The notes under the pieces are model-generated. The model searched no databases. It saw only the letters and a program-made list of their open reading frames with translations, and was not told the origin of the DNA. From the NCBI RefSeq assembly GCF_036227225.1, contig NZ_CP109444.1:8785501-8849500 (forward strand): a DNA stretch of 64,000 nucleotides, in the 5' to 3' direction. A program made the translations under genes and the position numbers. Origin of the DNA: Streptomyces sp. NBC_01478 (GTDB taxonomy: Bacteria > Actinomycetota > Actinomycetes > Streptomycetales > Streptomycetaceae). This document shows, in pieces, positions 45,044-62,742 of this stretch (positions are counted from its first letter, which is position 1; every line of letters starts with the position of its first letter).

Positions 45044-46648
45044 TCAACGGCGTTGCAGCACCCGCCTGGTCGCGCGGGCGAGCCGGACCGCGGGCCGCGT
45101 CGAACGCGGGGCCGGCCCCGAGCGCTCCAGCCACCACTCCCGCAACTCCCGCCGCGCCTCGACATCCTCCGGCCCGCCCGACAGCAGCAACTGCCCGGCG
45201 AAGTCCAGCGCGTCACGCCGGTACCCGCCGCTCATCGGGTGCGAGTGCGCGTACGCGAGAAAGGCCGACCGGTACGACGCCCCGAGAATCACCGGCAGTT
45301 CAGGAGCCACCTTCGCCACGACATCGGCCCGCTTCACCCCGAGCGCCCGCGCCTGCACCCCGAGCCGCACCCGATCGAACCCGTCGGGCACAGGAGTCCC
45401 GGCGACAAGGGCGGAGAGCAGAGCGACCTGAGCGAGGGCGAGACGCTGGCGAGCGGAGTCGGAGGTCGGCGATGCGGCGGGGGGAGCGCCGCTGCCCCGG
45501 GGCGCGGGCGTGTCCTGCGGCACCTCGGCGGCGCGTGTTGTCTGTCCCTCCGGCGATCTGGTGGCTTGCGGCGTCTGTGCCTCCGGCGACCCTGCGACCC
45601 GCAGCGTCTGCGCCTTCGCTGACCCCGTGGCCCGCATCGGCTCCGCCTTCGGCGACCCCACAGCCCGTAGCGTCTGTGCCTCCGGCGCCCCCGTGGCCTG
45701 TAGCGTCTTCGCCCCCGCCGCCCCTGCCGCCCGCGTGGCTCGCATCGACTTCGTCTCCGGCGCCCCCGCCGCCTCTAGCCTCGTCGACTCCCGCGCGGGC
45801 GTCCCGTTCGTGGTCGAGCGTGCCCAGCCCTTGGCCACTGCCCCGCGGATTGCCATCAACTCCCGTTCCAGTTCTGCTGGTTCGGGGAAGTTGTCGTCGC
45901 GTTCCAGTAGTACCCCCGGCGGGGAGACGCGGGTCGCGAGGTCGGTGAGGATGGCGAGGATCGGGGCGGGGACGGGGTGGGCGTGGGTGTCGTGCCAGAC
46001 GCCGTCGCGTTCGATGCCGCCGGCGACATGGACGTAGGCGATGGCCTCGACGGGGAGTTCGGCGAGGGCCTCGGCCGGGCTCTCGCCGCGGTTGACGTGG
46101 TTGGTGTGCAGGTTGGCGACGTCGATCAGGAGCCGTACGCCGGTGCGGTCGGCCAGGTCGTACAGGAACTGGCCCTCGGTCATCTCCTCGCCCGGCCAGG
46201 CCAGCAGTGCGGCGATGTTCTCGACGGCGAGGGGTACGGGCAGCGCGTCCTGGGCGATGCGGATGTTCTCGCAGAGCACGTCGAGGGCGTCGCGGGTGCG
46301 CGGGACCGGCAGCAGGTGGCCGGCTTCGAGGAGCGGGGACGCGGTGAGTCGGCCGCCCGCGCGGACGAACGCGATGTGCTCGGTGATCAGCGGCGAGCCC
46401 AGCGCCTCGGCCCGTTCGGCGAGCGCCGTCAGCCTGCCCGCGTCCGGCCGGTCGGCACCGCCGAGGCCGAGGGAGACGCCGTGCGGGATCACGGTCACGC
46501 CGCGTTCGCGCAGCCGTAGCAGCGATTCGGGGAGGTGGCCGGGGCAGACGTTCTCGGCGACCGCCTCGACCCAGTCGATGCCCGGCATGCGCTCCACGGC
46601 GTCCGCGATCTCCGGCCGCCAACCGATGCCCGTCCCCAGTCGTTCCAT
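45044..46648 (-). CDS. DUF692/MNIO-family protein with SCO6045-type C-terminal domain
   Basis: This 534-residue protein starts with a DUF692 TIM barrel (about 1-285). Metal-ligand candidates are visible in [53 protein letters not shown] and [13 protein letters not shown]692 enzymes (multinuclear non-heme iron oxidases such as MbnB, TglH and BufB) modify cysteine or Asp in peptides. An 80-residue linker of 11-13-residue repeats follows, then a C-terminal helical domain (about 400-534) like that of S. coelicolor SCO6045. In canonical systems a separate partner protein brings the peptide; here the fused domain may do so. No obvious precursor peptide was found nearby. ATG 46648 is preceded by GGGGACGG. 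Confidence 0.78.
45530..45770 (-). repeat. Degenerate coding repeats in the DUF692 linker
   Basis: The linker encodes about six units of 33-39 bases with the peptide pattern [47 protein letters not shown]. Units are imperfect but clearly related, which suggests repeat expansion within the gene. Confidence 0.7.
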
Positions 46649-46737
46649 CGTCCGTCCCCGTCCGCCAGGCGAGCCATGAACCCCATGAACTCCACAAGTC
46701 CGCTGTTCGGTGTGACGGGGGTATCGCCCACGGGCAG

Positions 46738-46790
46738 GGCCCCGAACCTCGGCCGCGTCACTTTCAGAGCAACATTTGAGGTTCGGGGCC
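46738..46790 (-). promoter_or_regulatory. Long-loop inverted repeat before the DUF692 gene
   Basis: Perfect 13-bp arms GGCCCCGAACCTC and GAGGTTCGGGGCC are 27 bases apart, between the stop of DUF4142 copy B and the DUF692 start. It could end the upstream transcript or act as a leader structure for DUF692. Confidence 0.5.
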
Positions 46791-46815
46791 AGGACCCGGA
46801 CGGCCGGGGCAGGCC

Positions 46816-47604
46816 CTACCCCAGCACGCCGTTCGAGTCGACCGGATCCGGTCGGCCGGTGTTGACCGTGCCCGGTGCGGCCGGGGACGGGCGTGAGGTG
46901 GTGCCGATGTTCGGGCTTGCCACGGCGGCCGGTGCCGAGGGGGCCGGCTGGCCGGGTACGGGTGCCGCGGGGCCGGTCGGGCTGGCGGTCGAGGCGTTCG
47001 CGATCCCGTTGGCGATCGCGTCGAAGTCGACCCGCCCGGTCTTCTCCAGCACGGTGATGTGGTCGAGCACGGTCTGGTTGGCGTCCGAGGCCAGTTGTCG
47101 CACCAAGGTGTTGCGGGTGGTGTTCCGTACGGCGCCGATGGCCGGGAAGATCTTGCCGTGCGCGGCCCGCAGCAGGTTGGCGAACTTGTACTCGTACTCC
47201 GTGCCGGTCGCCGCGCTCATCTCCTGCAGCCAGCCCTGCTGTTGCTCGTTCGGCACGTTCGGCAGCGCGACATTGAGCTGGGCCGCGATGATCCGCACCC
47301 GCTTGTCGAGGTCGGTGTGACCGACGATGAGATGGTCCCCGGCCTCCTTGATCGCCTGGCTGGGCGCCCGCTCGACCGCCTGTTGCCCGGCCGGCAGCTC
47401 CCACAGCCCGGCCAGCCGCACCCGCACGATCAGATCCCGGTCGGCGGCCGTCAACGGCCCCCACTCGGTGTTCACGGTGCCCGCCGCCACGTTCGCCTGC
47501 CCGGTCCCCGCCCGGTCGGCGTACGACCACACGGGAAAGGCGAGCGCACCGGTGGTGGCGACGATGGTCGCGATGAACACAGCCGTACCGTTGATACGAC
47601 GCAA
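46816..47604 (-). CDS. DUF4142 exported protein, copy B
   Basis: This 262-residue paralogue of the protein at 44.1 kb has the same anchor ending [11 protein letters not shown], the same DUF4142 bundle ([57 protein letters not shown]) and a longer Pro/Ala tail. TTG 47604 is chosen because GGGAGG lies five bases upstream and this start aligns with copy A. The DUF692 gene sits between the copies, so the three may be co-functional. Confidence 0.78.
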
Positions 47605-47737
47605 GGGAGCCTCCCGGGGGAACCAACTGGTCGTTGGAGAAGTTGACGCGTGGCCAGTGCCTGGAGGTACGCGTGGGCCACTCGGCTTGTTCAAAGGGAG
47701 GGCAGCTTTCCTCAAAGGGCAGGCAAAGGAAGCGAGT

Positions 47738-49136: not shown

Positions 49137-49190
49137 GGTGGTCCACCCTAAGCAACACGGGGGAAACGGACACTTCCTAGGATGCGGCGG

Positions 49191-49637
49191 ATGCACCTGA
49201 TCGTCCTGGACGCCCCCACCGAGTGGAGCCGCTTCGCCGACGGCTCCGTCGAGCGCCGCATGCTGCTCGCGCTCGGCGACCACCTCGGCACGCTGCTGCG
49301 TCCGAAGCCGCTCATGCTGCCCGACGGCAGCCGCGTCGAGGTAGAGGGCATCGACGCCGACCGCCGCGTCCTCGTCCAACTCGTCGGCAACCAAGGTGCG
49401 TACAAGCCCGCCTACCGCAACAAGGTCATGGCGGACATGTTCAAACTGCTCTGGCTGCGGGAATCCGTACCGACCGCCGAGCGGGCGATCCTGCTGGTCA
49501 CCGAGCTGATCGTGCAGGCCCTGGGCGGCTGGGTGGCGCGCGCCGCGGCGGACCTCGGGATCGAGATCCATGTGTACGACGGCAGCACGGTCGCCCCGCT
49601 GCGCCCCTCGTCGCGGCCAGACGTAAAACGCCCGTAA
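49191..49637 (+). CDS. Conserved hypothetical protein (148 aa)
   Basis: This soluble protein begins MHLIVLDAPTEWSRFADGSV. It has the segment EVEGIDADRRVLVQLVGNQG followed by AYKPAYRNKVMADMFKLLWL. The spacing of acidic residues, Gln and Lys faintly recalls PD-(D/E)XK nucleases, but that is only a suggestion. ATG 49191 is chosen because TAGGAT (49178-49183) ends seven bases before it, which fits a leaderless promoter; ATG 49182 lies inside that box. Function unknown. Confidence 0.7.
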   Translation: MHLIVLDAPTEWSRFADGSVERRMLLALGDHLGTLLRPKPLMLPDGSRVEVEGIDADRRVLVQLVGNQGAYKPAYRNKVMADMFKLLWLRESVPTAERAILLVTELIVQALGGWVARAAADLGIEIHVYDGSTVAPLRPSSRPDVKRP

Positions 49638-49764: not shown

Positions 49765-49787
49765 GCGACATGGATGGGAGCGTGAAG

Positions 49788-50612
49788 GTGACTGGTACGC
49801 CAGCACTCCAACTGCGGTCGGTACGACGGGTCTACGGCTTCGGGTCCGCCGCGACCACGGCCCTCGACGACGTCCACCTGACCGTGCCGTCGGGCCGTTT
49901 CGTCAGCCTCATCGGCCCCAGCGGCTGCGGGAAGTCGACGCTGCTGCGACTCGTCGCGGGGCTCGAACAGCCGGACCACGGCGAGGTGTCGGTCCACGGG
50001 GTGACACCGGCACAGGCGTGCGCGGCCAAGATGATCGGGCTCGTGCCGCAGAGCCCGGCGCTGCTGCCCTGGCTGTCCGTCCTGCGCAACGTCACGCTGC
50101 CGCAGAAGATCAACCGGGGCGCCGGGAAGCGTCGTGAGCGCATCGCCGACTTCGCCGAGCGGCAGACGGCGGTTCCCGACATGGAGGAACTCCTCGTCAA
50201 GGCCGGTCTCGGCGACGCCCTGCACAAGCTTCCCGCCCAGTTGTCCGGCGGAATGCGCCAACGCGCCGCGATCGTGCGGGCGTTCGGCCTGCAACCCGAC
50301 GTGCTCGTCATGGACGAACCCTTCTCGGCGCTCGACGAGTTCACCCGCGAAAGCCTCCAGGACCAACTCCTCGACCTGTGGGAGGAGTTGAGGACCACAG
50401 TTCTGTTCGTCACGCACTCCGTGTCCGAGGCCGTACGGCTCTCCGACACCGTCGTCGTCATGGCGCCGAACCCCGGCCGCATCGTCGAGAGCATCGACGT
50501 CGACCTGCCTCGGCCACGCGGTGAACGGCTCTTCGGGGAACGGCGGTTCCACGAGTACGAGGACCTGGTGAGAGAGCGGCTGCGGCGCGCCTGGCACAGC
50601 GAAGCCGCGTGA
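49788..50612 (+). CDS. ABC ATPase, nitrate/sulfonate/taurine/THI5 type
   Basis: This 274-residue ATPase has Walker A GPSGCGKST, the Q-loop GLVPQSPALLPW, signature LSGGMRQRAAIVRAFG, Walker B VLVMDEPFSALDE and the switch His in VTHSVSEAV. It matches the SsuB/TauB/ThiZ group, which imports alkanesulfonates, taurine or thiamine-related pyrimidines. GTG 49788 lies seven bases after GGGAG; ATG 49770 is an in-frame alternative. First gene of an eight-gene cassette; the permease start overlaps its stop. Confidence 0.85.
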   Translation: MTGTPALQLRSVRRVYGFGSAATTALDDVHLTVPSGRFVSLIGPSGCGKSTLLRLVAGLEQPDHGEVSVHGVTPAQACAAKMIGLVPQSPALLPWLSVLRNVTLPQKINRGAGKRRERIADFAERQTAVPDMEELLVKAGLGDALHKLPAQLSGGMRQRAAIVRAFGLQPDVLVMDEPFSALDEFTRESLQDQLLDLWEELRTTVLFVTHSVSEAVRLSDTVVVMAPNPGRIVESIDVDLPRPRGERLFGERRFHEYEDLVRERLRRAWHSEAA

Positions 50613-51499
50613 GTGGGGGCGTGAGGGACATGACCGTAGCCGACGAACGCACCACCGACGCCCCGGCGGCCGGTACGGCCGGGAAGCAACCGCCCGTCGA
50701 ACCGTCCCGGTTCAGTCTGAAGCACCCGAGGTCGCGGATCGCGTGGGTCCGGCCGGCCGTGTGGTTGCCCCTCGTCGTGATGCTGGCGCTCCTTGCCGGG
50801 CTCTGGCACTGGGGGGCCGAACAACTTCCCTATCTGCTGCCGCCGTTGTCCGACGTCGGCAGTTCGCTCTCCGGCAATTTCGGCTACTACGTCCACAACG
50901 CCCTTGTCACGCTCGGTGAGGCCACGGCCGGGCTGGGGATGGGGTTCGTCGGGGCGTTCGTCCTCGCGGTGCTGACCAGTGAACTTCCGTTGGTGCGGCG
51001 GGCGGTGATGCCGATCGCCGTCGTCCTCAATGTGACCCCGCTGGTGGCGGTCGCGCCGGCCCTGGTCGTCGCCTTCGGGTTCGGGCCCATGCCCAAGCTG
51101 ATCATCACCGGGCTGATCTGCTTCTTCCCGATCCTCATCAACACGGCTACGGGGCTGCGGTCCGTTCCTCAGCAGGTGTTGCAGGTCTATCGGACGATGG
51201 ACGCGAGTCGGGTCGAGCTGTTGTGGCATGTGCGGGTTCCGAATGCGCTGCCGTATCTCTTTGCCGCGCTGCGTATCGTCTTTCCGCTGTCGATCATCGG
51301 GGCGGTCGTTGCCGAGATGTCGGCGTCCGGGTCCACGGGGGGTCTTGGCACGGCGATCAGTGTGGCCTCCTCCATGAATCAACTCCCCGTTGTTTACGCC
51401 TCGATCCTCGTTCTAGCGGTGATGGGCGTGTTGCTGTTGCTTGCGGTGACCGTCGTTGAGCGGCGTGTGCTGCATTGGCACGACAGTAATCAGGACTGA
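50609..51499 (+). CDS. ABC permease, SsuC/TauC/ThiX type
   Basis: This 296-residue permease has a cytoplasmic head of about 45 residues and six helices, with an EAA-like loop (QVYRTMDASRVELLWHVRVP). GTG 50609 overlaps the ATPase stop (GTGA); ATG 50630 is an alternative. It works with the adjacent ATPase and the lipoprotein after the repeat element. Confidence 0.83.
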   Translation: MSGGVRDMTVADERTTDAPAAGTAGKQPPVEPSRFSLKHPRSRIAWVRPAVWLPLVVMLALLAGLWHWGAEQLPYLLPPLSDVGSSLSGNFGYYVHNALVTLGEATAGLGMGFVGAFVLAVLTSELPLVRRAVMPIAVVLNVTPLVAVAPALVVAFGFGPMPKLIITGLICFFPILINTATGLRSVPQQVLQVYRTMDASRVELLWHVRVPNALPYLFAALRIVFPLSIIGAVVAEMSASGSTGGLGTAISVASSMNQLPVVYASILVLAVMGVLLLLAVTVVERRVLHWHDSNQD

Positions 51500-51526
51500 C
51501 CGCTGCGCGGCTTGGTCGTCCTTTGG

Positions 51527-51604
51527 CTGCGGGCCTGTGGGGGCCGGCCGCGCCCACGCGGCGGAGCCGCATATCGATACAGCGCCGTGCCCCTTTGGGG
51601 CGCT
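51527..51604 (-). repeat. Dispersed repeat, copy 3
   Basis: Reverse-strand copy of the element at 31.1 and 41.4 kb, with hairpin GCGGC-TCC-GCCGC (51570-51558) and GTATCGATATGCGGCTCC. It interrupts the cassette between permease and binding-protein genes. Unlike the other two copies it lies within one transcription unit, in inverse orientation to it. Confidence 0.8.
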
Positions 51605-51640
51605 CAACTCACCGGCAATAACGCCAGTTTGGAGTCACCC

Positions 51641-52750
51641 ATGTCCCACCATCGCCTCACCAGATCAGCCCTCGTCGCCACCGTGCTGACGATCGGAGTC
51701 GCCGGATGCGGATCCGGCTCGGACGACAGCAGCTCCGCCGGTTCGGCCGGGTCCGCGATATCCGCGAAGCGGTGTGCGGAGAACAAGGCCGCCGGGAAGA
51801 TCACGTATCTCTCCGGGTATCAGTTCCAGTCCTCCGTGTCGATCCTCGAATACATCGCCGCCGCCAAGCTGGGGTATTTCAAGGACCTTTGCCTCACCGT
51901 CGATCTCAAGCCCGGCAGTGGTGACACCGCGCAGAACACCAAGCTGCTCGCCGGCGGACAGGCGACCGTGTCCGCGATCTCCGAGCAGGATCTGATCCAG
52001 GCGCAGGCCAACGGCATCGACATCAAGGGCATTTCCTCGTACTCGAACGCCGGTCTCGACATTCTGATGACCAACAAGGACATCACCGACCTGACCCAGC
52101 TCGACGGCAAGGTCGTCGGGCACAAGGGGTATGTCCCCGCCGCCGTCGAGGCGATGCTGGTCAAGGCCGGTGTGAAGTGGGACTCGCTCAAGCTGGTGAA
52201 GGAGGGCTACGACCCCTCCGTGCTGCCCCGGAAGCAGGGCGGTCTCGAAGCGCTCACCGGGTTCGTCTCGAACGAGCCGAACCAGCTCAAGGCGGCCGGC
52301 AAGGACGTCACCGTGTGGAAGCCGGTCGACTACAAGATCCCGAGCTCGATCGGCGCGATGGCGGTCAACCCGGCGTTCGCCAAGGCGCATCCGCACGCCG
52401 TCGAGGACATTCTGCGGGCCGCGCTGCACGCGTACGAGTACTGCTCCTCCAGTGAGGCGCACATCACCGAATGCGTGGGCTACGCGGCCAAGTTGTCCGG
52501 CCCGACCTACGACAAGAAGCTCAACGCGACGATCTGGAAGACCGAGACGCAGGTCGTCAAGGAGAACCCGACGCCCGGACAGCCGCTGGGCGGGATCGAC
52601 CCCGACAACGTAACCCAACTCGTCGCCATGCTGCACCAGTTCAAGATCGTGCCGAGCAGTGTGACCGCCGCCAAGGCCGGGGCGTGGTTCGACACCTCGT
52701 TCGTCAAGGACATCTACAGCGGCGACAAGCTCGTCTGGCCCGCGCCGTAG
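51641..52750 (+). CDS. THI5/NMT1-like solute-binding lipoprotein
   Basis: This 369-residue lipoprotein has its lipobox at Cys23 (TIGVAGC). The NMT1/THI5-type binding fold shows in ITYLSGYQFQSSVSILEYIA, AKLGYFKDLCL and LAGGQATVSAISEQDLIQAQ. Homologues bind aminopyrimidine precursors of thiamine, riboflavin or sulfonates. ATG 51641 follows GGAG by six bases. It probably supplies the substrate for the two flavin oxygenases that follow. The ligand cannot be read from sequence. Confidence 0.78.
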   Translation: MSHHRLTRSALVATVLTIGVAGCGSGSDDSSSAGSAGSAISAKRCAENKAAGKITYLSGYQFQSSVSILEYIAAAKLGYFKDLCLTVDLKPGSGDTAQNTKLLAGGQATVSAISEQDLIQAQANGIDIKGISSYSNAGLDILMTNKDITDLTQLDGKVVGHKGYVPAAVEAMLVKAGVKWDSLKLVKEGYDPSVLPRKQGGLEALTGFVSNEPNQLKAAGKDVTVWKPVDYKIPSSIGAMAVNPAFAKAHPHAVEDILRAALHAYEYCSSSEAHITECVGYAAKLSGPTYDKKLNATIWKTETQVVKENPTPGQPLGGIDPDNVTQLVAMLHQFKIVPSSVTAAKAGAWFDTSFVKDIYSGDKLVWPAP

Positions 52751-52809
52751 GCCCCATGGTCGGCAGACCGTCGAAACGCCCCTGAAAGAGCCGCAGAAAG
52801 GTCCCTGAC

Positions 52810-53871
52810 GTGCCCGCGAAAGAGTATGGAATCTTCCTTCCCATCGGGAACGGCGGCTGGATGCTGTCCACCACCGCGCCGCACCCCGAGGCGACCTACG
52901 CCTACAACAAGCGTGCCGCCCTGCACGCGGAGAACATCGGGCTCGACTTCGTGATGTCGATGGCCAAGTGGCGTGGTTTCGGCGGGAGTACGGACCACTG
53001 GGGCCGCTCGCTGGAGTCGATGACGATGATGTCGGCGCTCGCCGAGGCGACCAGCAGGGTCAAGATCTGGGCGACCCTGCACGCCAACATCCACAACCCC
53101 GCCGTCGCGGCGAAGATGCTCACGACCCTCCAGGACATCTCCGGGGGCCGGGCCGGCATGAACATCGTGAACGGCTCGTACGCGGGGGAGTTCGAGCAAT
53201 TCGGGGACTGGGACCCGGAGTTGAGCCACGAGGACCGCTACCGGATGACGGAGCTGTGGACGGAGGCGGTCACCCGGCTGTGGACCGAGGACTCGGTCAC
53301 CCTGAACACCCCGTACTTCGACCTCGTCGACTGCGAGTCCCGTCCGCATCCGGCGACCCGGCCGACGCTCATCAGCGCGGGACGGTCCGAGGACGCGCGC
53401 CGCTTCCAGGCCCGGTACGCCGACGGTGCCTTCCTCGCCGCCGACAGCCTCGACGACATGCGGTCGCTCTCCGCCGACGTCCACGCCCGGGCGAAGGCCA
53501 ACGGCCGTGTCTGCAAGACCTATTCGATGCTCACCGTCGTCCAGGACGACACCGACGAGCTGGCCGTCAAGAAGGTGAAGGAGTGGGGCGTGGGCGTCGA
53601 CCGCGAGGCACTCGCCCATATGCGGCACACCTGGGGCGTGCCCGCCGACCAGGCCCGTGCGTGGGCCGACGGCGCCGACGGGGAGGCGGCCTTCCAGACG
53701 CCGTACGTCGCCGGCAATGCCCGTACGGTCGCCGAGCACATCGAGTACATCGTGCGGGAGGCCGACCTCGACGGACTCATGCTGATCTTCCCGGAGTACG
53801 ACGAGGACATGCTGCTGTTCGGTGAGACCGTGCTGCCCGCGCTGCGCGCCCGCGACGAGGTGGCGGCCTGA
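52810..53871 (+). CDS. RutA-like FMN-dependent monooxygenase
   Basis: This 353-residue member of the luciferase-like monooxygenase (LLM) family opens with YGIFLPIGNGGWMLSTTAP, very similar to RutA, the flavin-N5-peroxide enzyme that opens the uracil ring. MSMAKWRGFGGSTDHWG, DISGGRAGMNIVNGSY and LISAGRSEDARRFQARYADG also match the family. Unlike RutA, several later segments differ, so the ring it attacks is unknown. GTG 52810 has a purine-rich AAAGG upstream. Its TGATG overlap with the hydrolase indicates coupling. Confidence 0.78.
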   Translation: MPAKEYGIFLPIGNGGWMLSTTAPHPEATYAYNKRAALHAENIGLDFVMSMAKWRGFGGSTDHWGRSLESMTMMSALAEATSRVKIWATLHANIHNPAVAAKMLTTLQDISGGRAGMNIVNGSYAGEFEQFGDWDPELSHEDRYRMTELWTEAVTRLWTEDSVTLNTPYFDLVDCESRPHPATRPTLISAGRSEDARRFQARYADGAFLAADSLDDMRSLSADVHARAKANGRVCKTYSMLTVVQDDTDELAVKKVKEWGVGVDREALAHMRHTWGVPADQARAWADGADGEAAFQTPYVAGNARTVAEHIEYIVREADLDGLMLIFPEYDEDMLLFGETVLPALRARDEVAA

Positions 53872-54530
53872 TGTCCGACCTGCGGGAGCGACAACTCGCC
53901 CACCTCGCCAAGTCGTTCGGCAGGCCCGCGCTCGTCGTGGTCGACGTGCAACGGGACTTCGCCGATCCCGACCGGCTCGGGGCGTACGGCCTGACGGACG
54001 CGGCGCTCACGGCGCTGGACCGGACGGTCACCCGTATCGCCGAGCTCGTCGACGCCGCACGTGCCGCCGAAGTACCGGTCGTCTGGGTCGAGTTGGGCAG
54101 CGACCCGGCGCGCCCGTGGCGGTCGAGCAACTGGCTGCGCGAGGGCGACTACGACGCGCCCATGAGCCCGGACGAGCCGTGCCGGATCGGGACGCCCGGC
54201 GCCGAGTGGTATCGAATGCGGCCCGCGGAAGGCGAGTTGCGGGTGGTCAAGCGCGGGTACAGCGGCTTCCTCGGCACCGATCTCGACGCGCGGCTGCGCG
54301 CCGCCGGCCACGACTGGCTCACCGTCGTCGGCCTGACGAGCGAGTGCTGTGTGTACGCGACCGCCCAGGACGCCGTCCAACTCGACTGGCCCGTCGTCGT
54401 ACCGCAGGACACGACGACCGCCTACGACCACCACGTCAACGCCGCCGCCCTGTTCCAACTGGGCCTGAACGTCGCAGTGTTGAGCGACGCCGACGAGGTC
54501 GTGGACCTGTGGAAGAAGGCTGCGCGATGA
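53871..54530 (+). CDS. RutB-like cysteine hydrolase (isochorismatase family)
   Basis: This 219-residue enzyme has the isochorismatase-type triad Asp25 (VVVDVQRDF), Lys127 (VKRGYSGF) and probably Cys160 (GLTSECCVYA). RutB of the same family hydrolyses ureidoacrylate peracid after RutA. Here it would cut the amide or carbamate of the ring-opened product. ATG 53871 shares one base with the preceding stop; its own stop overlaps the next start (ATGA). Confidence 0.83.
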   Translation: MSDLRERQLAHLAKSFGRPALVVVDVQRDFADPDRLGAYGLTDAALTALDRTVTRIAELVDAARAAEVPVVWVELGSDPARPWRSSNWLREGDYDAPMSPDEPCRIGTPGAEWYRMRPAEGELRVVKRGYSGFLGTDLDARLRAAGHDWLTVVGLTSECCVYATAQDAVQLDWPVVVPQDTTTAYDHHVNAAALFQLGLNVAVLSDADEVVDLWKKAAR

Positions 54531-55861
54531 CCGGAATGCACATCGGTTACGACCTCTCCTTCACCCACACCGAAGGTGCCTGGGCCCGGCAGGGCTCCTG
54601 GATCGGGCGGGACTTCCCGGACGTCCGGATGTTCATGGAACTGGCGCAGACCGCCGAACGCGCGGGCGTCGGGCTGCTGTTCTTCGGCGACGGCAGCGGT
54701 ATCCCCAGCACCTGGCGGGGCAGCATCGCACCGGCCGTGGAGTGGGGCATCCAGTGGCCGCGCCACGACATGTCACCGGTCATCGCCGCGATGTCGACGG
54801 TGACGGAGAAGGTCGGCTTCGGGCTGACGTACTCCTCGACGTTCATGCATCCCTTCTACGTCGCCCGGCTGTTGAACTCGCTCGACCATGTGACCGGCGG
54901 CCGTATCGCCTTCAACGTGGTCGCCTCCACCCGCGGCGCGGACGCGGCGAACTACGGGTTCACCGAGCTGATGGACCACGACCTGCGCTACGAGCGGATG
55001 GAGGAATTCGTCGACGTCTGCCGGGCGTTGTGGGACTCCGTGGCGCCGGACGCGATCGTCCGCGACCGGAGCACGGGCCGGTTCGCCGACCCCGCGAAGG
55101 TGCGTCCCATCGACCACGACGGGCGCTTCTTCACCGTCAAGGGCCCGCTCGCGTCCGTCCCCGGCCCGCAGTACCACCCGCTCATCGTCCAGGCGGGCAA
55201 CTCGCCCCGGGGGATTGCCGCTTCGGCCCGCTTCGCCGATCTCGTCTTCGGCTTCGGCGGGCATCTGGCGAGCCAGCAGCGCCATCGCAAGATGCTCGAC
55301 GAGGCGTTGCTCGCCGAAGGACGGGACCCGGAGCACGTCGGCATCCTCTGGGCCACGCAGGTGATCGTCGGCCGTACGAAGGCCGAGGCGTCGGCGCGCT
55401 GCGACGCGGTGCACGAGTTCTGGAACGAGGAGGCCGTCGCCACCTACCTCTCGCACAACGCCGGCTACGACTTCTCGACGCTTCCCGGATCCTTCCGACT
55501 CGGCGAACTGCGCGACGAGTTGGCGGCGGCCAACGCCAGTCCCGCGGGCATCGTCGGCTCGCTCGTCACCGAGTTCGGCGCGGACCACACCATGAGCCGT
55601 AGCGAGTTCTTCGCGCACGGACGGGGGCGGGCGACGGGCCTGGACCACAGTGTGGTCGGCGACCCGGCCGCCGTGGCCGACGCGTTGGAGGAGAACTTCG
55701 CGGCGACCGGATCGCGCGGCGGCTTCATGTTCTCCAGCCCGCTGGCCATGCCCTCCGGCTTCGCCGGGATCAGCGAACTGCTGCTGCCCGAACTGCGCCG
55801 CCGCGGCGCCCTCGCACCGGCGTACACCGGATCGACTCTGCGCGAGAACCTGGCAGTCTGA
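54527..55861 (+). CDS. NtaA/SnaA/DszA-type FMN-dependent monooxygenase
   Basis: This 444-residue enzyme is a second LLM protein, of the reduced-FMN-dependent group that includes nitrilotriacetate, pristinamycin IIA and dibenzothiophene-sulfone monooxygenases. It has [67 protein letters not shown], and [20 protein letters not shown]. Starting at ATG 54527 it overlaps the hydrolase by four bases. It needs FMNH2, which the flavin reductase at the cassette end can supply. Confidence 0.83.
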
Positions 55862-55862
55862 G

Positions 55863-57317
55863 ATGGCGGTGGCGAGTGGAGGCACGAGTGCGCGGCGCGA
55901 GTGGTTCGCCCTCGGCAGCCTGTGCACGGGGTTCTTCATGCTGCTGCTGGACAGCACGATCACCTCGGTCGCGCTGCCGTCCCTGATCAGTGGGTTGCAC
56001 GCCAGTGAGACCACCGCGATGTGGGTCAACAGCGGTTACCTCATCGCGTACGCGGTGCCGCTGGTCGTCGCGGGACGGCTCGGCGATCGTTACGGCCATC
56101 GACGCGTCCATCTGATCGGGCTTGCGGCGTTCACCCTCGGGTCGCTGCTGTGCGCAACTGCCGCCACCATCACGGCACTTGTCGCCTGGCGGGTGACGCA
56201 GGGCATCGGGGCCGCGCTGATGACACCGCAGTGCCTGACCCTCATCAAGGCACTGTTCCGGCCGCCACGCCTCGCCGTAGCGCTCGGGGTCTGGGGCGCG
56301 GTCGGCGGCGCGGCGGTGGCCGTCGGGCCGTTGCTGGGCGGGTTCCTCGTCGCGGTCGGGGGCTGGCCCGCGGTGTTCTGGGTCAACGTTCCGGTCGGTG
56401 TCGCCGCGATGGCCGCCGTGGCCGTGTTCGTCCCGGTCCTGCCGCGCCAGGAGGCACGCATCCCGGTCTGGGCGATCTGCGCGAACGCGAGCGGTGTCGG
56501 TGCGCTGGTGATCGGCATCCAGGGCACGGACGCGGCGCGGGCCCAAGTGCTGGGCGTGCCGCGGTGGTTGCTCGTCGTCGTCGGCGTGGTGGTGGTCGCG
56601 GGGGTGGTGTGGTTCCAGCGCCGGGACGGTCGACGGGCCCTCGTACCGGTCGAGTTGCTGCGCAGCCGGGGGTTCGTCGTCGCGGCCTGGGCCGGTGCCG
56701 CCGCGGCCTTCTGCTCCGGGTCGGCGATGATCCCGCTGATGCTGTACCTCCAGCGGGAGCGCGGGCTCGACGCCGGCGCGGCCGCGCTCACCCTCGTACC
56801 GATGGGCGTGGTCTGCCTGTTGGGGGCGCCGGTGTCGGCCCGGCTCAACAACGGGATCGGGACCCGCGCGGTCGCCGTCATCGGCTCCGGCGCCCTCGTC
56901 CTGTCCATCGGGACATCGGCGGTGCTCGTCGCGACGGACGCCCCGGTCTCCGCACTGACCGCCACCTTCGCGGTGTACGGGGTGGCCAACTCCTTTGTCT
57001 GGTCGCCCCTTTCCATCGCGGCGGTGACCTCGGTCGGCCCGGACGAGGTCGGGGCGGCGTCCGGAACCTTCAACGCCATGAAGCAACTCGGGGCGGTGCT
57101 GGGCAGCGCGGTGTGCGCGGTGCTGCTGGCCGGGCACGGCTACGCGGTCACGCTCGGCGGGCTCGCGATCGTCGGACTGCTCTGCCTCCTCGCGTGCGCA
57201 CTCCTGCGACCACGAACAGAGCCTCCCGGCACGGGACTTCCGCCGGTGCACGCCGTTCCACCACAACCCACAAGTACCCACGGGAGTCGCCTGATGAAGC
57301 CTGACGTGGCCTCATGA
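55863..57317 (+). CDS. MFS transporter, DHA2-like
   Basis: This 484-residue protein has about 14 predicted helices, as in the DHA2 drug-proton antiporter family. [35 protein letters not shown] and [17 protein letters not shown] are typical. It starts one base after the monooxygenase stop, ATG 55863, and its stop overlaps the flavin reductase start. It may export a product or take up an alternative substrate. Confidence 0.85.
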
Positions 57318-57862
57318 GCCGGAACACAGACGGGGGTTGCACGATGACGGCAATGGAAGGCCTGGAGGACCTGGACGGCATCACCTCGGATCCCGGGGAG
57401 ATGACGAGGGCGTTCTCCGGTTTCCCGTCGGGGGTCGCGGCCCTCTCCGCGCGCGTCCACGGCGACCCGACCGTCATGGTCGTCTCATCGTTCGCCGTCG
57501 GCGTCTCCCACAACCCGCCCATGGTCTCCTTCGCGGCCCAACACACCTCGACCACCTGGCCGTTGCTGTCCCGCGCGCAGGCCATCGGCATCTCCGTCCT
57601 GGGCGAGGGCCACAGCGACAAGGCCCGTCAACTCTCCTCCCGCAGCAAGGCGGGCCGGTTCACCGACCTGCGCACGGTGGAGGCGGAATCCGGCGCGATC
57701 TTCCTCGACGGCGCGCCGGTGTGGCTGGAGTGCACGGTCGAGCACAGCTATCCGGCGGGCGACCACGACATCATCGTGCTGCGGGTGCTGGCGATGCGGT
57801 CCGACGACGAGAGGAGTCCGTTGGTGTGGCACCGAAGGACCTTGAAGATGCTGGGTAGTTGA
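57314..57862 (+). CDS. Flavin reductase (RutF/HpaC type)
   Basis: This 182-residue protein belongs to the short-chain flavin reductase family: [54 protein letters not shown] and the substrate-site His in [18 protein letters not shown]. It reduces FMN with NAD(P)H to feed the two LLM oxygenases. ATG 57314 overlaps the MFS stop (ATGA); ATG 57344 is an alternative. Last gene of the cassette. Confidence 0.83.
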
Positions 57863-59855: not shown

Positions 59856-60013
59856 CCGCTGACGCGCACGTGGGCCCGGGTGCCCTGACTCACGAACGAC
59901 GCCTCGCAGGAACAGCGCCCGGCCAAGACGCGTCGCCACGCGACGGCGGCCGTCCTTCCTCACCCCCCACCCTCCTCCAGGCATGTCCCCGCCCGGAGCA
60001 GAAGGAGAGTTCC

Positions 60014-61603
60014 GTGAACTCCACGCACAGTGAGCGTCTGGATTACCTCGTGGTCGGTGCCGGTCCCGCCGGGCTCCAGCTCGGGCAGTTACTCCAGGCG
60101 GCCGGGCACGGATACCGGATCCTGGAGAGCGGTCATGCTCCCGGCACGTTCTTCGGCACCTTCCCCCGCCACCGCCAACTGATCTCCATCAACAAGGTGT
60201 ACAACGGCACCGACGATCCCGAACTGAACCTCCGGATGGACTGGAACTCCCTGCTGTCCCCGGACCCGAACCTGCTCTTCAGCCGTTACAGCAAGCGCTA
60301 TTTCCCGCACGCCGACGACCTGGTGCGCTATCTCGCCGATTTCGCCGAGACGTTCAAACTGGACATCGCCTACGACACCCGGGTGGAGCGGATCCGGCGG
60401 GACGAGGACGGTTTCGCCGTCACCGATCAGCACGGTCACGAACACCGCGCCCGTCGGCTGATCATGGCCACCGGACTGACCCGGCCCAACATCCCCGACA
60501 TCCTCGGTATCGAGACGGCCGAGGACTACTCCGTCGTCTCCGTGGACCCCGAGGACTTCATCGACCGGCGCGTCCTGATCATCGGCAAGGGCAACTCCGC
60601 CCTGGAGACCGCTGACAACCTTGTCGAGACGGCCGCGGTCATCCATGTCGCCGGCCCGCACTCGGTACGCATGGCCTGGAACAGCCACTACGTCGGTCAT
60701 CTCCGCGCGGTCAACAACAACTTCCTCGACACCTACCAACTCAAGTCGCAGAACGCCCTGTTGGACGGAAACGTGCTGTCCGTCGAGAAGGACCCCGACG
60801 GCATGTACCGCGTCCGCTTCAGCTTCTCCCGGGCCGACGAGGTCGTGAAGGAACTGCGTTACGACCGGGTGATCGTCTGCACCGGATTCCGCTTCGACGC
60901 CTCGGTGTTCGACCCGGAGTGCGGTCCCGCCCTGGTCATCGACGACCGTTTCGCCGAACTCTCCCCGGCGTACGAGTCGGTGAACGTGCCCGGCCTCTAC
61001 TTCGCCGGAACGCTCATGCAGCAGCGCGACTTCAAGAAGTCCACCGGTGGCTTCATCCACGGCTTCCGGTACGCCGTACGGGCCCTGAGCCGCATCCTCG
61101 GCGAACGCCATCACGAACAGCCCTGGCCGCACCGGGAGTTGGAGAGCGACCCGGCCGCGCTGGCGGACGCCGTGGTGGACCGGGTCAACCGCAGCTCGGC
61201 ACTGTGGCAGCAGTTCGGCGTCATCGGGGACCTGATCGTCACACCGTCCGGCGAACCGGCCGGGTACCACGAGGAGGTGCCGGTCGCGTACGCCCATGAA
61301 CGCCAACTCTCCGACAGCGACGACTACTTCACCGTCACCCTGGAGTACGGCCCCGACCACGACAAGGTCGACCCCTTCGACATCACCGTGCGCCGCACCG
61401 CCCAGAACTCGGTCGACGACGCCTTCGACGCGGCGTACCTCCATCCGGTGATCCGCCACCACGGCGGCGGTGAACTCCTCGGCACCCATCACATGGCCGA
61501 GAACCTGGAGAACCACTGGGACGACCCGGAGGTCCACCACGCCCCGCTGGCCGCGTTCTTCGCCCGCGAGCTGGACCGTCGGCCGACTCCGGCGGGGCGG
61601 TGA
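60014..61603 (+). CDS. FAD/NAD(P)-dependent monooxygenase-like protein (FOXRED2-like)
   Basis: This 529-residue flavoprotein has FAD motif YLVVGAGPAGLQLGQLL (Gly15-17-20), a second dinucleotide motif VLIIGKGNSALETADNL near residue 190 and the joining segment IMATGLTRPN. It is closer to eukaryotic FOXRED2-like and flavin monooxygenase-like proteins than to small reductases. GTG 60014 lies six bases after AAGGAG. Its stop overlaps the next start (GTGA). It probably oxidises a peptide or small molecule, or supplies electrons. Confidence 0.75.
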   Translation: MNSTHSERLDYLVVGAGPAGLQLGQLLQAAGHGYRILESGHAPGTFFGTFPRHRQLISINKVYNGTDDPELNLRMDWNSLLSPDPNLLFSRYSKRYFPHADDLVRYLADFAETFKLDIAYDTRVERIRRDEDGFAVTDQHGHEHRARRLIMATGLTRPNIPDILGIETAEDYSVVSVDPEDFIDRRVLIIGKGNSALETADNLVETAAVIHVAGPHSVRMAWNSHYVGHLRAVNNNFLDTYQLKSQNALLDGNVLSVEKDPDGMYRVRFSFSRADEVVKELRYDRVIVCTGFRFDASVFDPECGPALVIDDRFAELSPAYESVNVPGLYFAGTLMQQRDFKKSTGGFIHGFRYAVRALSRILGERHHEQPWPHRELESDPAALADAVVDRVNRSSALWQQFGVIGDLIVTPSGEPAGYHEEVPVAYAHERQLSDSDDYFTVTLEYGPDHDKVDPFDITVRRTAQNSVDDAFDAAYLHPVIRHHGGGELLGTHHMAENLENHWDDPEVHHAPLAAFFARELDRRPTPAGR

Positions 61604-62742
61604 GCGGCGTGCAGTACACCGTCCGCGACTTCGAGACCGCGGCACGCGCCGAACTGGACCCTGTGTACGCCGACTTCATCGCCGGCGGGGCACGCGACGA
61701 GATCACCGTACGGGCCAACGAGGCGGCGTTCGGGCGGCTGCAACTGCTGCCCCGGGTGCTGCGGGGAAGCGCCGAACGGGAGTTGGGTATCAGCCTGCTC
61801 GGCAGCCGGGCGAGCCTGCCGGTCCTGATCTCCCCGACCGCCTTCCACAAACTGGTCGATCCGGAGGGGGAGTTGGCGACCGCCCGGGCCGCCGCCGCAG
61901 CCGGCGCGATCATGATCGTGGCGATGGCGTCCACGGTGGCGGTGGGCGAGATCGCCGACGCGGCGCGCGCGGCCGGAGACGACGTATCGCTGTGGTTCCA
62001 GCTCTACATCCAGCCCGACCTGGACATCACCGAGGCGCTGGTGCGGCGGGCCACGGACGCGGGGTGCACCGCGCTCGTGGTCACCGTGGACTCCCCGGTC
62101 CTGGGCGCGGGCGAGCGCAACCGGCGCAACGGCTTCCACGACCTGCCGCCGGGCCTGCGCTGCGAGAACCTGGTGGACCTGCGCGACGGAGAGCGCGGCC
62201 ACGTGCGCCAGATCGCCATGTCCCCCGAACTGAACTGGGAGCACATCGACTGGCTGCGCCGTACCACCGCGCTGCCCATCCTGCTCAAGGGTGTCCTGCA
62301 CCCCGAGGACGCCAGGCTCGCGGTCCGCCACGGTGTCGACGGGCTGTTGCTGTCGAACCACGGCGGTCGCCAACTCGACACCGTCCCCGCCACGTTGGAG
62401 CTGCTGCCCGAGATCCTCGCCGCCGTCGAGGGCCGCATCCCGGTCGTGCTGGACGGAGGCGTACGGCGCGGCACCGACGCGGTCAAGGCACTGGCGCTCG
62501 GCGCGTCCGCGGTGGGCATCGGCCGGCCCGTGATGTGGGCACTGGCCGAGGGCGGCGAGAAGGGCGTACGGCGTCTCCTCGAACTGCTGCGGGACGAACT
62601 CGACGACACCCTGGCCCTGTGCGGGGCCTCCGGACTCGCCGACCTGACACCCGATCTGGTTCGGATGCCCGCGTGGGGTCCTGTCCCTGGTCCCGCCGTG
62701 ACGCCGGGGGCGGACCGACGATTCGGCGGGGTGGTCGCGTGA
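61600..62742 (+). CDS. FMN-dependent alpha-hydroxy-acid oxidase
   Basis: This 380-residue TIM-barrel enzyme belongs to the lactate/glycolate/mandelate oxidase family. The active-site His254 lies in LLSNHGGRQLDTV, phosphate binding in VLDGGVRRGTDAVKAL and GASAVGIGRP. It oxidises a 2-hydroxy acid to the keto acid. The N-terminal Tyr of the family is kept as DFIAGGARDEITVRANEAAF with Phe in the variable place. GTG 61600 overlaps the flavoprotein and its stop overlaps the P450-like start, so all three are coupled. Confidence 0.87.
   Translation: MSGVQYTVRDFETAARAELDPVYADFIAGGARDEITVRANEAAFGRLQLLPRVLRGSAERELGISLLGSRASLPVLISPTAFHKLVDPEGELATARAAAAAGAIMIVAMASTVAVGEIADAARAAGDDVSLWFQLYIQPDLDITEALVRRATDAGCTALVVTVDSPVLGAGERNRRNGFHDLPPGLRCENLVDLRDGERGHVRQIAMSPELNWEHIDWLRRTTALPILLKGVLHPEDARLAVRHGVDGLLLSNHGGRQLDTVPATLELLPEILAAVEGRIPVVLDGGVRRGTDAVKALALGASAVGIGRPVMWALAEGGEKGVRRLLELLRDELDDTLALCGASGLADLTPDLVRMPAWGPVPGPAVTPGADRRFGGVVA

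What the first reader, a model, noticed from the sequence alone, without database searches (positions are those of the whole stretch)
49788..57862. Importer plus RutA/RutB-like and NtaA-like oxygenases: a possible undescribed heterocycle degradation cassette
Eight consecutive genes, mostly with overlapping stop/start codons, combine a THI5/NMT1-type ABC importer, a RutA-like flavin oxygenase, a RutB-like cysteine hydrolase, a second FMN monooxygenase of the NtaA/SnaA/DszA type, an MFS carrier and a flavin reductase. In the Rut pathway, RutA opens uracil, RutB hydrolyses the ureidoacrylate peracid and RutF reduces flavin. Here RutC, RutD, RutE and RutR are absent and a second oxygenase is added, so the substrate is probably not plain uracil. 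A pyrimidine, flavin or thiamine-like ring taken up by the THI5-type protein is my inference.
Basis: partly seen in the sequence, partly recalled or inferred. Interest (0 to 1): 0.75.

Follow-up and report, generated by a model that had tools for sequence, protein, structure and literature searches.

The report
Pyrimidine-ring import and cleavage operon
A nine-gene operon, found sparsely in soil actinobacteria, looks built to import a pyrimidine-like ring compound and break it open with flavin-dependent oxygenases; it uses a RutA-like enzyme whose pocket differs from the uracil enzyme and a small conserved protein of unknown kind, and the actual compound is still unknown.

Summary
The eight genes are real and conserved: 35 of 50 related loci, in at least nine genera, keep all eight in order. 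C7 matches no Pfam, NCBIfam or PADLOC family; its predicted core is alpha-beta-beta-beta-alpha-beta. Sixteen of 50 loci add a riboflavin kinase.

The RutA-like enzyme is not RutA: 234 bits against a cut-off of 498, and the same genome has a genuine RutA elsewhere (635 bits). It keeps the oxygen-pocket residues T105 and N134 but, like 19 of 19 relatives examined, lacks W139. The importer's binding-protein profile matches mainly thiamin-pyrimidine proteins among solved structures. In 3 of 10 plasmid records the oxygenase's relatives lie beside thiamin-pyrimidine salvage genes.

Best reading: uptake and oxidative opening of a substituted pyrimidine or pyrimidinone, thiamin-derived or similar, probably for nitrogen. 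Flavin catabolism is possible; sulfur scavenging is unlikely. The substrate is not shown. New variant of a known kind.

The parts
49182..49637 (+). C7: 151-aa protein of no known family, ninth gene of the unit, 132 nt before the ATPase
   Evidence: 39 of 50 loci, 35 of 35 complete cassettes, 9 of 9 RutA-bearing genomes of 296; no Pfam/NCBIfam/PADLOC match; model with mean pLDDT 88
49770..50612 (+). ABC importer ATPase
   Evidence: PF00005, 105 bits; nitrate/sulfonate/taurine-type ATPase models all below their cut-offs
50609..51499 (+). ABC importer permease
   Evidence: PF00528, 98 bits
51641..52750 (+). THI5/NMT1-type lipoprotein binding protein
   Evidence: PF09084, 107 bits; best PDB match ThiY 3ix1
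52810..53871 (+). RutA-like FMN oxygenase, W139-less clade
   Evidence: TIGR03612 233.8 bits, cut-off 498.3; best PDB match RutA; residues
53871..54530 (+). RutB-like isochorismatase-fold Cys hydrolase
   Evidence: PF00857, 113 bits; D25, K127, C160 invariant in 18 of 18; PDB neighbours
54527..55861 (+). NtaA/DmoA-family FMN monooxygenase
   Evidence: TIGR03860 358 bits, above cut-off 279.7; best PDB match DszA
55863..57317 (+). MFS transporter, DHA2-like
   Evidence: PF07690, 216 bits; TIGR00711 202 bits, cut-off 230
57314..57862 (+). flavin reductase
   Evidence: PF01613, 110 bits; RutF model 46 bits, cut-off 255

Best explanation
It is an accessory, patchily distributed operon that takes up a substituted pyrimidine or pyrimidinone (not plain uracil; a thiamin-derived pyrimidine or close analogue is the leading specific candidate) and opens its ring oxidatively, probably to release nitrogen. 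Proposed steps: (1) the THI5-type ABC importer brings the ring in (family shown, ligand inferred). (2) The flavin reductase, helped in many relatives by an SsuE-like reductase and a one-domain riboflavin kinase, supplies FMNH2 (inferred from families). (3) The RutA-like oxygenase forms an N5-type flavin-oxygen adduct in the conserved T105/N134 pocket and cleaves a ring C-N amide bond (pocket residues shown, reaction inferred). (4) The RutB-like Cys hydrolase cuts the resulting ureido- or amido-type C-N bond (triad residues shown, reaction inferred). (5) The NtaA/DszA-type oxygenase makes a second oxidative cut or trims a substituent (inferred; order unknown). (6) The MFS protein exports a product or imports a relative (inferred). 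C7 belongs to the unit; its function is unknown.
For: Eight genes in order in 35 of 50 loci and co-inherited. Genuine RutA at another place in the genome (635 bits), so this copy has its own role. W139, which borders the substrate side of the flavin in RutA (PMC10005588, passages), is S/A/G in 20 of 20 clade members against W in 3 of 3 canonical RutA, while T105 and N134 are kept in 20 of 20. Binding-protein profile: six PDB matches, ThiY (4.8e-18), THI5 twice, THI13 twice and 4nmy. RutB-like profile: among its best PDB matches are RutB, biuret hydrolase and N-carbamoylsarcosine amidohydrolase, which cut ureido-type bonds (substrates recalled). Relatives of the oxygenase beside TenA, an aminohydrolase, a deformylase-type M20 protein and an importer annotated as thiamin-related in 3 of 10 plasmid records. 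Bmp-type importers, a family that includes nucleoside and riboflavin importers (PMC4418817, passages; nucleosides recalled), next to clade members in Actinoplanes, Rhizobium, Paracoccaceae and Pantoea.
Against: No ligand or product was measured. THI5-type proteins bind many things; the single sequence also matches the broad SsuA-family model weakly, and it is only 18-19% identical to the thiamin-linked binding proteins of Rhizobium and Paracoccaceae. In those records the thiamin genes are separate transcription units from the oxygenase, two of the three records are near-identical, and Pantoea, Cupriavidus and others have the oxygenase without them. The actinobacterial cassette has no deaminase, which amino-pyrimidines such as HMP would need before a RutA-type cut (inference). 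Six of 50 loci keep neither RutB-like nor NtaA-like genes although the contig runs on, so steps 4 and 5 are optional. The 20-member clade has only moderate support (80/82, with a long-branch warning).
Confidence: 0.55

Rival explanations
1. Flavin catabolism: the operon imports riboflavin, lumichrome or a deazaflavin; the NtaA-like enzyme acts on the side chain as riboflavin lyase does, and the RutA/RutB-like pair opens the uracil-like ring.
For: One-domain riboflavin kinase in 16 of 50 loci, in one locus in frame with C7 (L045); FMN reductases; THI5-type RibXY and Bmp-type RfuABCD are riboflavin importers (PMC4418817, passages); riboflavin and lumichrome catabolic clusters exist and include a P450 (PMC12746152, abstract and passages), and three Actinoplanes loci pair the oxygenase with a P450; lost W139 could admit a larger ring (inference).
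Against: The kinase is absent from the Streptomyces loci, so it looks like cofactor supply. The NtaA-like enzyme is nearer to DszA (227 bits) than to riboflavin lyase (161 bits). No FMN riboswitch at the window or in 7 loci. No ribokinase or aromatic-ring genes as in the known clusters (inspection).
Confidence: 0.13
2. Another nitrogen heterocycle or a natural product (hydantoin, barbiturate, creatinine- or biuret-like compound, methylated pyrimidine, antibiotic).
For: RutB-like profile also fits biuret hydrolase and N-carbamoylsarcosine amidohydrolase. Cupriavidus and Leisingera relatives sit with Rieske oxygenase pairs, and Cupriavidus with formaldehyde dehydrogenase, which suggests demethylation there.
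Against: The binding-protein profile points to thiamin-type pyrimidines.
Confidence: 0.15
3. Plain uracil or thymine use as a Rut variant.
For: RutA-, RutB-like and reductase genes together; no RutB or RutD above cut-off elsewhere in the genome.
Against: Genuine RutA elsewhere; W139 lost; second oxygenase and ABC importer, not part of Rut (recalled).
Confidence: 0.07
4. Organosulfur scavenging: an Ssu-like importer with desulfonating oxygenases of the SfnG/DszA/SsuD kind.
For: ATPase, permease and binding protein match nitrate/sulfonate/taurine models, all below cut-off; NtaA-like enzyme nearest to DszA; SfnG is the next PDB relative of the RutA-like enzyme after RutA; SsuE-like reductase in 16 of 50 loci.
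Against: No sulfonate-binding protein among the PDB matches of the profile; SfnG model 161 of 383 bits; a RutB-type amide hydrolase in 42 of 50 loci has no role there (inference).
Confidence: 0.07

Closest known systems
Rut pathway (RutABCDEF of Escherichia coli)
   Same: RutA-type FMN oxygenase with T105/N134 pocket, RutB-type Cys hydrolase, separate flavin reductase
   Different: RutA, RutB and RutF models all below cut-off; W139 lost; ABC importer, NtaA-like oxygenase and C7 added; RutC/D/E absent
Thiamin-pyrimidine salvage (ThiXYZ, TenA, formylaminopyrimidine deformylase)
   Same: THI5-type importer; relatives of the RutA-like enzyme lie next to such genes in 3 of 10 plasmid records
   Different: No TenA, deformylase or deaminase in the window's operon; no TPP riboswitch found
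Riboflavin catabolic genes (RcaE cluster; lumichrome Lum cluster)
   Same: FMN-dependent oxygenase of the NtaA family; riboflavin kinase and flavin reductase in relatives (kinase and reductase of the Rca cluster recalled)
   Different: NtaA-like enzyme nearer to DszA than to riboflavin lyase; the Lum cluster opens the pyrimidine ring by hydrolysis (PMC12746152, passages)
Alkanesulfonate/dimethylsulfone use (SsuABC, SsuD, SfnG)
   Same: Luciferase fold, FMN reductase partners, importer of the same broad family
   Different: SfnG model 161 bits against a cut-off of 383; RutB-type hydrolase present; SfnG 8t0u keeps the Trp lost here (alignment)

Membership tests
RutA (TIGR03612 equivalog) | score above the curated cut-off of 498.3 bits | tested here: not met
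   233.8 bits; another protein of the genome scores 635
RutA (TIGR03612 equivalog) | oxygen-pocket residues T105 and N134 | tested here: met
   residue roles from PMC10005588
RutA (TIGR03612 equivalog) | W139 lining the si-side cavity | tested here: not met
   S in the window, S/A/G in 20 of 20 clade members
RutB (TIGR03614 equivalog) | score above the cut-off of 377.95 bits | tested here: not met
   61.8 bits
RutB (TIGR03614 equivalog) | Asp-Lys-Cys triad of the isochorismatase fold | tested here: met
   D25, K127, C160 invariant in 18 of 18, in line with RutB; roles recalled
Rut pathway | RutC, RutD and RutE in the operon | tested here: not met
   none among the products of the operon
NtaA/DmoA FMN monooxygenases (TIGR03860) | score above the cut-off of 279.7 bits | tested here: met
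   358.1 bits
THI5/NMT1-type binding proteins (PF09084) | score above the Pfam gathering score of 20.5 | tested here: met
   106.8 bits
ThiY (formylaminopyrimidine importer) | binds a thiamin-type pyrimidine | not testable with these tools
   sequence similarity only
Aliphatic sulfonate binding proteins (TIGR01728) | score above the cut-off of 163.5 bits | tested here: not met
   39.3 bits
SfnG dimethylsulfone monooxygenase (TIGR04021) | score above the cut-off of 382.95 bits | tested here: not met
   161.2 bits
Riboflavin catabolic cluster (RcaE type) | riboflavin lyase as closest characterised oxygenase | tested here: not met
   DszA 226.6 bits, riboflavin lyase 160.5 bits
PD-(D/E)XK nuclease-like fold (C7) | alpha-beta-beta-beta-alpha-beta core | tested here: inconclusive
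   order of elements in the model agrees; no structural comparison obtained
PD-(D/E)XK nuclease-like fold (C7) | acidic ... (Asp/Glu)-X-Lys catalytic residues | tested here: inconclusive
   second strand reads E-V-E-G, but the third reads Q-(L/V/M)-V where (D/E)-X-K is expected; assignment by eye

The most novel reading that the evidence does not exclude
A second RutA family, marked by loss of W139 and found in Actinobacteria and Proteobacteria, opens substituted pyrimidinones such as deaminated thiamin pyrimidine. In Actinobacteria it has been built, with a second oxygenase and a small protein of a new family (C7), into a dedicated operon that degrades the pyrimidine half of vitamin B1 or a look-alike: an oxidative vitamin-pyrimidine degradation route.
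Probability: 0.25. Interest if true: 0.75.

Novelty: new variant of a known kind. Interest (0 to 1): 0.55.

Why it matters
If right, it defines a sister family to RutA with its own substrate range and points to genes for degrading a substituted, perhaps vitamin-derived, pyrimidine in soil bacteria; the searches listed no paper on such genes. It also ties an orphan protein family (C7) to a defined metabolic unit, so that its function can be tested by a simple deletion.

Tried and rejected
Riboswitches: no Rfam match at the window up to E 1, none at gathering score in 7 actinobacterial loci or in the two loci with distant importer relatives; in 7 of the 10 plasmid loci only intron and frameshift elements of mobile DNA. 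Promoter and terminator scan: nothing beyond shuffles.

E292 as a second RutA pocket marker was dropped: it is G even in the genome's own canonical RutA.

C7 as a defence or known-family protein: no PADLOC match up to E 1 (3 proteins), no NCBIfam match (2 members), and no Pfam match better than E 0.03 in 33 members. C7 has relatives outside the cassette: 6 of the 15 C7-bearing genomes of the class draw lack the RutA-like gene at E <= 1e-90. Of these, G265, G200, G166, G242 and one of two G037 copies (33-44% identity) have no cassette importer gene within the fetched stretch; the other G037 copy lies inside a matching importer with two binding proteins and no oxygenase, but that contig ends about 3 kb further on; G020 (E 5.6e-4) was not fetched.

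Distant importer relatives near ribA/ribH in G109 and G120 were considered as a flavin hint and given little weight, because hisG-, infC- and rplT-like genes (labels by eye) lie between.

A phylum-wide draw of 396 genomes gave only 3 matches to the RutA-like protein at E <= 1e-62, one of them a canonical-type RutA.

Correction made on checking: my notes called the best PDB match of the RutB-like profile (6xix) a biuret hydrolase; the answer names it only 'Cysteine hydrolase'; RutB (5.2e-26), biuret hydrolase 6xjm (1.9e-25) and N-carbamoylsarcosine amidohydrolase (9.3e-25) follow.

Papers: PMC12746152 seen as outline, abstract and found passages; PMC10005588 and PMC4418817 as found passages; all others only as search listings. 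Searches bearing on whether the gene combination is in print: 0 papers; 8 listed; 0 papers; 104 papers, 12 listed; none of the listed titles is about it. Rca gene functions, control of thiamin salvage by TPP, and residue roles in RutB are recalled.
Full report
OBSERVATION. The window is bases 8,785,501-8,849,500 of a 12.1-Mb single-contig genome; the closest relatives of its RutA-like protein are in Streptomyces. The eight genes of the finding are present on the + strand at 49770-57862. Four of seven junctions overlap, one has a 1-nt gap, two have gaps of 141 and 59 nt.

CONSERVATION. A scan of 84,980 species genomes with peptide patterns from the RutA-like protein gave 50 loci. Genes on the same strand within 6.5 kb of the oxygenase, each of 50: RutA-like 50, binding protein 44, permease 43, ATPase 42, RutB-like 42, NtaA-like 40, MFS 38 (two types pooled), C7 38, flavin reductase 37 (two types pooled), riboflavin kinase 16, SsuE-like FMN reductase 16. 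All eight genes of the finding are in order in 35 of 50, the first six in 39 of 50. Among the 15 others, some contigs end early (for example L037, L054, L060), while L028, L029 and L055 keep only importer and oxygenase and L048, L050 and L059 only the oxygenase. Distances of C7, ATPase, permease, binding protein, RutB-like and NtaA-like proteins correlate with those of the RutA-like protein at r = 0.91-0.95 over 41 loci, so the set travels together. Clusters of flanking genes are shared mainly among close Streptomyces. The set is rare: the oxygenase is in 2 of 150 genomes of the genus, own included, and in 9 of 296 of the class.

A NINTH GENE. Window 49182-49637, 132 nt before the ATPase, encodes a 151-aa protein, here called C7. 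It matches nothing in Pfam, NCBIfam or PADLOC and its profile gave no significant PDB match (best E 0.077). It occurs in 39 of 50 loci and in all 35 complete cassettes. In 296 genomes of the class, C7 was found in 15 and the RutA-like gene (E <= 1e-90) in 9; all 9 have C7, on the same contig within about 5.3 kb. It is single-copy in the window's genome. Against the L013 homologue, changes fall 19/9/39 on codon positions 1/2/3, as in coding DNA. In one Paractinoplanes locus it shares one open frame with a riboflavin kinase domain (L045 13308-14093). A model from 33 sequences has mean pLDDT 88 and the order helix-strand-strand-strand-helix-strand, which resembles the PD-(D/E)XK fold; the conserved residues (E53, E55, G56, D58, Q66, N70, R79, N80, D85, K88) do not obviously give the canonical catalytic set. 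This reading is inference.

THE RUTA-LIKE ENZYME IS NOT RUTA. It scores 233.8 bits with the RutA model, cut-off 498.3. The same genome has another protein scoring 635 bits at 11,587,250, 61% identical to E. coli RutA in my alignment, while the window protein is 32%. The residues that form the oxygen pocket in RutA, T105 and N134 (PMC10005588, passages), are kept in 20 of 20 clade members. W139, which borders the cavity on the other face of the flavin (same paper), is S, A or G in 20 of 20, and W in E. coli RutA, in the genome's own RutA and in a third canonical RutA. The 20 form one group in the tree with moderate support (80/82, with a long-branch warning for the outgroup); within it lie an actinobacterial group, a proteobacterial group with RutB-like partners and a proteobacterial group mostly tied to Bmp-type importers. 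That the pocket is roomier and the substrate different is inference.

PARTNERS. The RutB-like protein keeps Asp25, Lys127 and Cys160 in 18 of 18 sequences. Its profile is nearest to a PDB entry named only 'Cysteine hydrolase' (6xix, 7.5e-30) and an isochorismatase-family protein (3hu5), then RutB (5.2e-26), biuret hydrolase (1.9e-25) and N-carbamoylsarcosine amidohydrolase (9.3e-25). The NtaA-like protein passes the NtaA/DmoA cut-off and is nearest to DszA. The binding protein, as a profile of 16, matches six PDB sequences at E <= 0.01: ThiY, THI5 (two), THI13 (two) and 4nmy, an extracellular solute-binding protein; no sulfonate, taurine or nitrate protein. As a single sequence it also matches the broad SsuA-family model below its cut-off, and ATPase and permease match sulfonate, taurine and nitrate models below theirs. 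The riboflavin kinase of relatives is one Flavokinase domain in 4 of 4 scanned and lies between MFS and flavin reductase in most loci that have it.

NEIGHBOURS ELSEWHERE. Three Actinoplanes loci have the oxygenase alone, divergent from a P450 and a Bmp-type ABC importer (families by Pfam for L048; by similarity for L050 and L059). Ten plasmid records hold relatives at E <= 1e-75 of the Rhizobium copy, and the regions of all ten were fetched. Acinetobacter and Paraburkholderia: MFS, RutA-like, RutB-like, M20-type hydrolase, flavin reductase. Rhizobium daejeonense, Rhizobium ACO-34A (99.7% identical oxygenase) and a Paracoccaceae strain: RutA-like, RidA, a hydrolase (RutD model 207 bits, cut-off 238.5, in R. 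daejeonense), Bmp importer, and within 10 kb an importer annotated as thiamin-related in two of the three, thiaminase II/TenA (124 bits, cut-off 130, in R. daejeonense) and an aminohydrolase; the Paracoccaceae M20 protein scores 722 bits with NF006370 (cut-off 412), which NCBIfam calls acetylornithine deacetylase and the record calls formylaminopyrimidine deformylase. Pantoea: the Bmp set without thiamin genes. Cupriavidus: SsuE-like and flavin reductase, RutA-like, RidA, hydrolase, an ABC importer (43/37/27% identical to the window's three proteins), Rieske oxygenase, formaldehyde dehydrogenase. Leisingera: reductases, RidA, hydrolase, Rieske oxygenase. Kozakia: oxygenase with TauD, SRPBCC, MFS and isochorismatase genes. 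Novosphingobium is not annotated; a RutB-like gene follows the oxygenase. So the thiamin link is seen in 3 of 10 plasmid records, two of them near-identical, and the window's binding protein is only 18-19% identical to the thiamin-linked ones.

READING. The importer, the oxygenase family and the thiamin-linked relatives agree on a pyrimidine-type ring; the genuine RutA elsewhere and the lost W139 argue against plain uracil; a RutB-type hydrolase fits a ureido- or amido-type product. I therefore commit to uptake and oxidative opening of a substituted pyrimidine or pyrimidinone (0.55), with degradation of a thiamin-derived pyrimidine as the boldest specific form (0.25, within that). Another heterocycle (0.15) is next. 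Flavin catabolism (0.13) gains from the kinase but loses from its optional nature and from the DszA-like second oxygenase. Sulfur scavenging (0.07) is disfavoured by the binding protein and the hydrolase, and plain uracil use (0.07) by the second RutA. None of these was tested at the bench.

Noticed in passing
L045:13308-14093: Riboflavin kinase domain and C7 in one open frame (a possible fusion) in Paractinoplanes.
   Followed up: partly
L048:2966-10050 (also L050, L059): RutA-like oxygenase alone, divergent from a P450 and a Bmp/PnrA-type ABC importer in Actinoplanes.
   Followed up: partly
L051:5401-11406 and L089:8228-14235: Two RutA-like copies in one cassette, the second directly after C7.
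   Followed up: no
L081:4869-9604 (G037): C7 inside a matching importer with two binding proteins and no oxygenase seen; the contig ends about 3 kb after C7.
   Followed up: partly
L117:7869-18368 and L122:563-9110: RutA-like oxygenase with RidA, alpha/beta hydrolase, two flavin reductases and a Rieske oxygenase pair (with formaldehyde dehydrogenase in Cupriavidus), suggesting a methylated substrate there.
   Followed up: partly
window 45047-47715, - strand: MbnB/TglH/ChrH-family protein (DUF692 type) next to a DUF4142 protein; possible RiPP-type locus.
   Followed up: no
window 48453 to about 49135, - strand: TetR-type regulator divergent from C7; its frame was clustered in only 6 of 50 loci, all Streptomyces (cluster c13; simple ORF calling may have missed others).
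   Followed up: partly
window 59870-62742, + strand: Overlapping pair of a FAD-dependent oxidoreductase and an FMN-dependent alpha-hydroxy-acid dehydrogenase, outside the operon.
   Followed up: no
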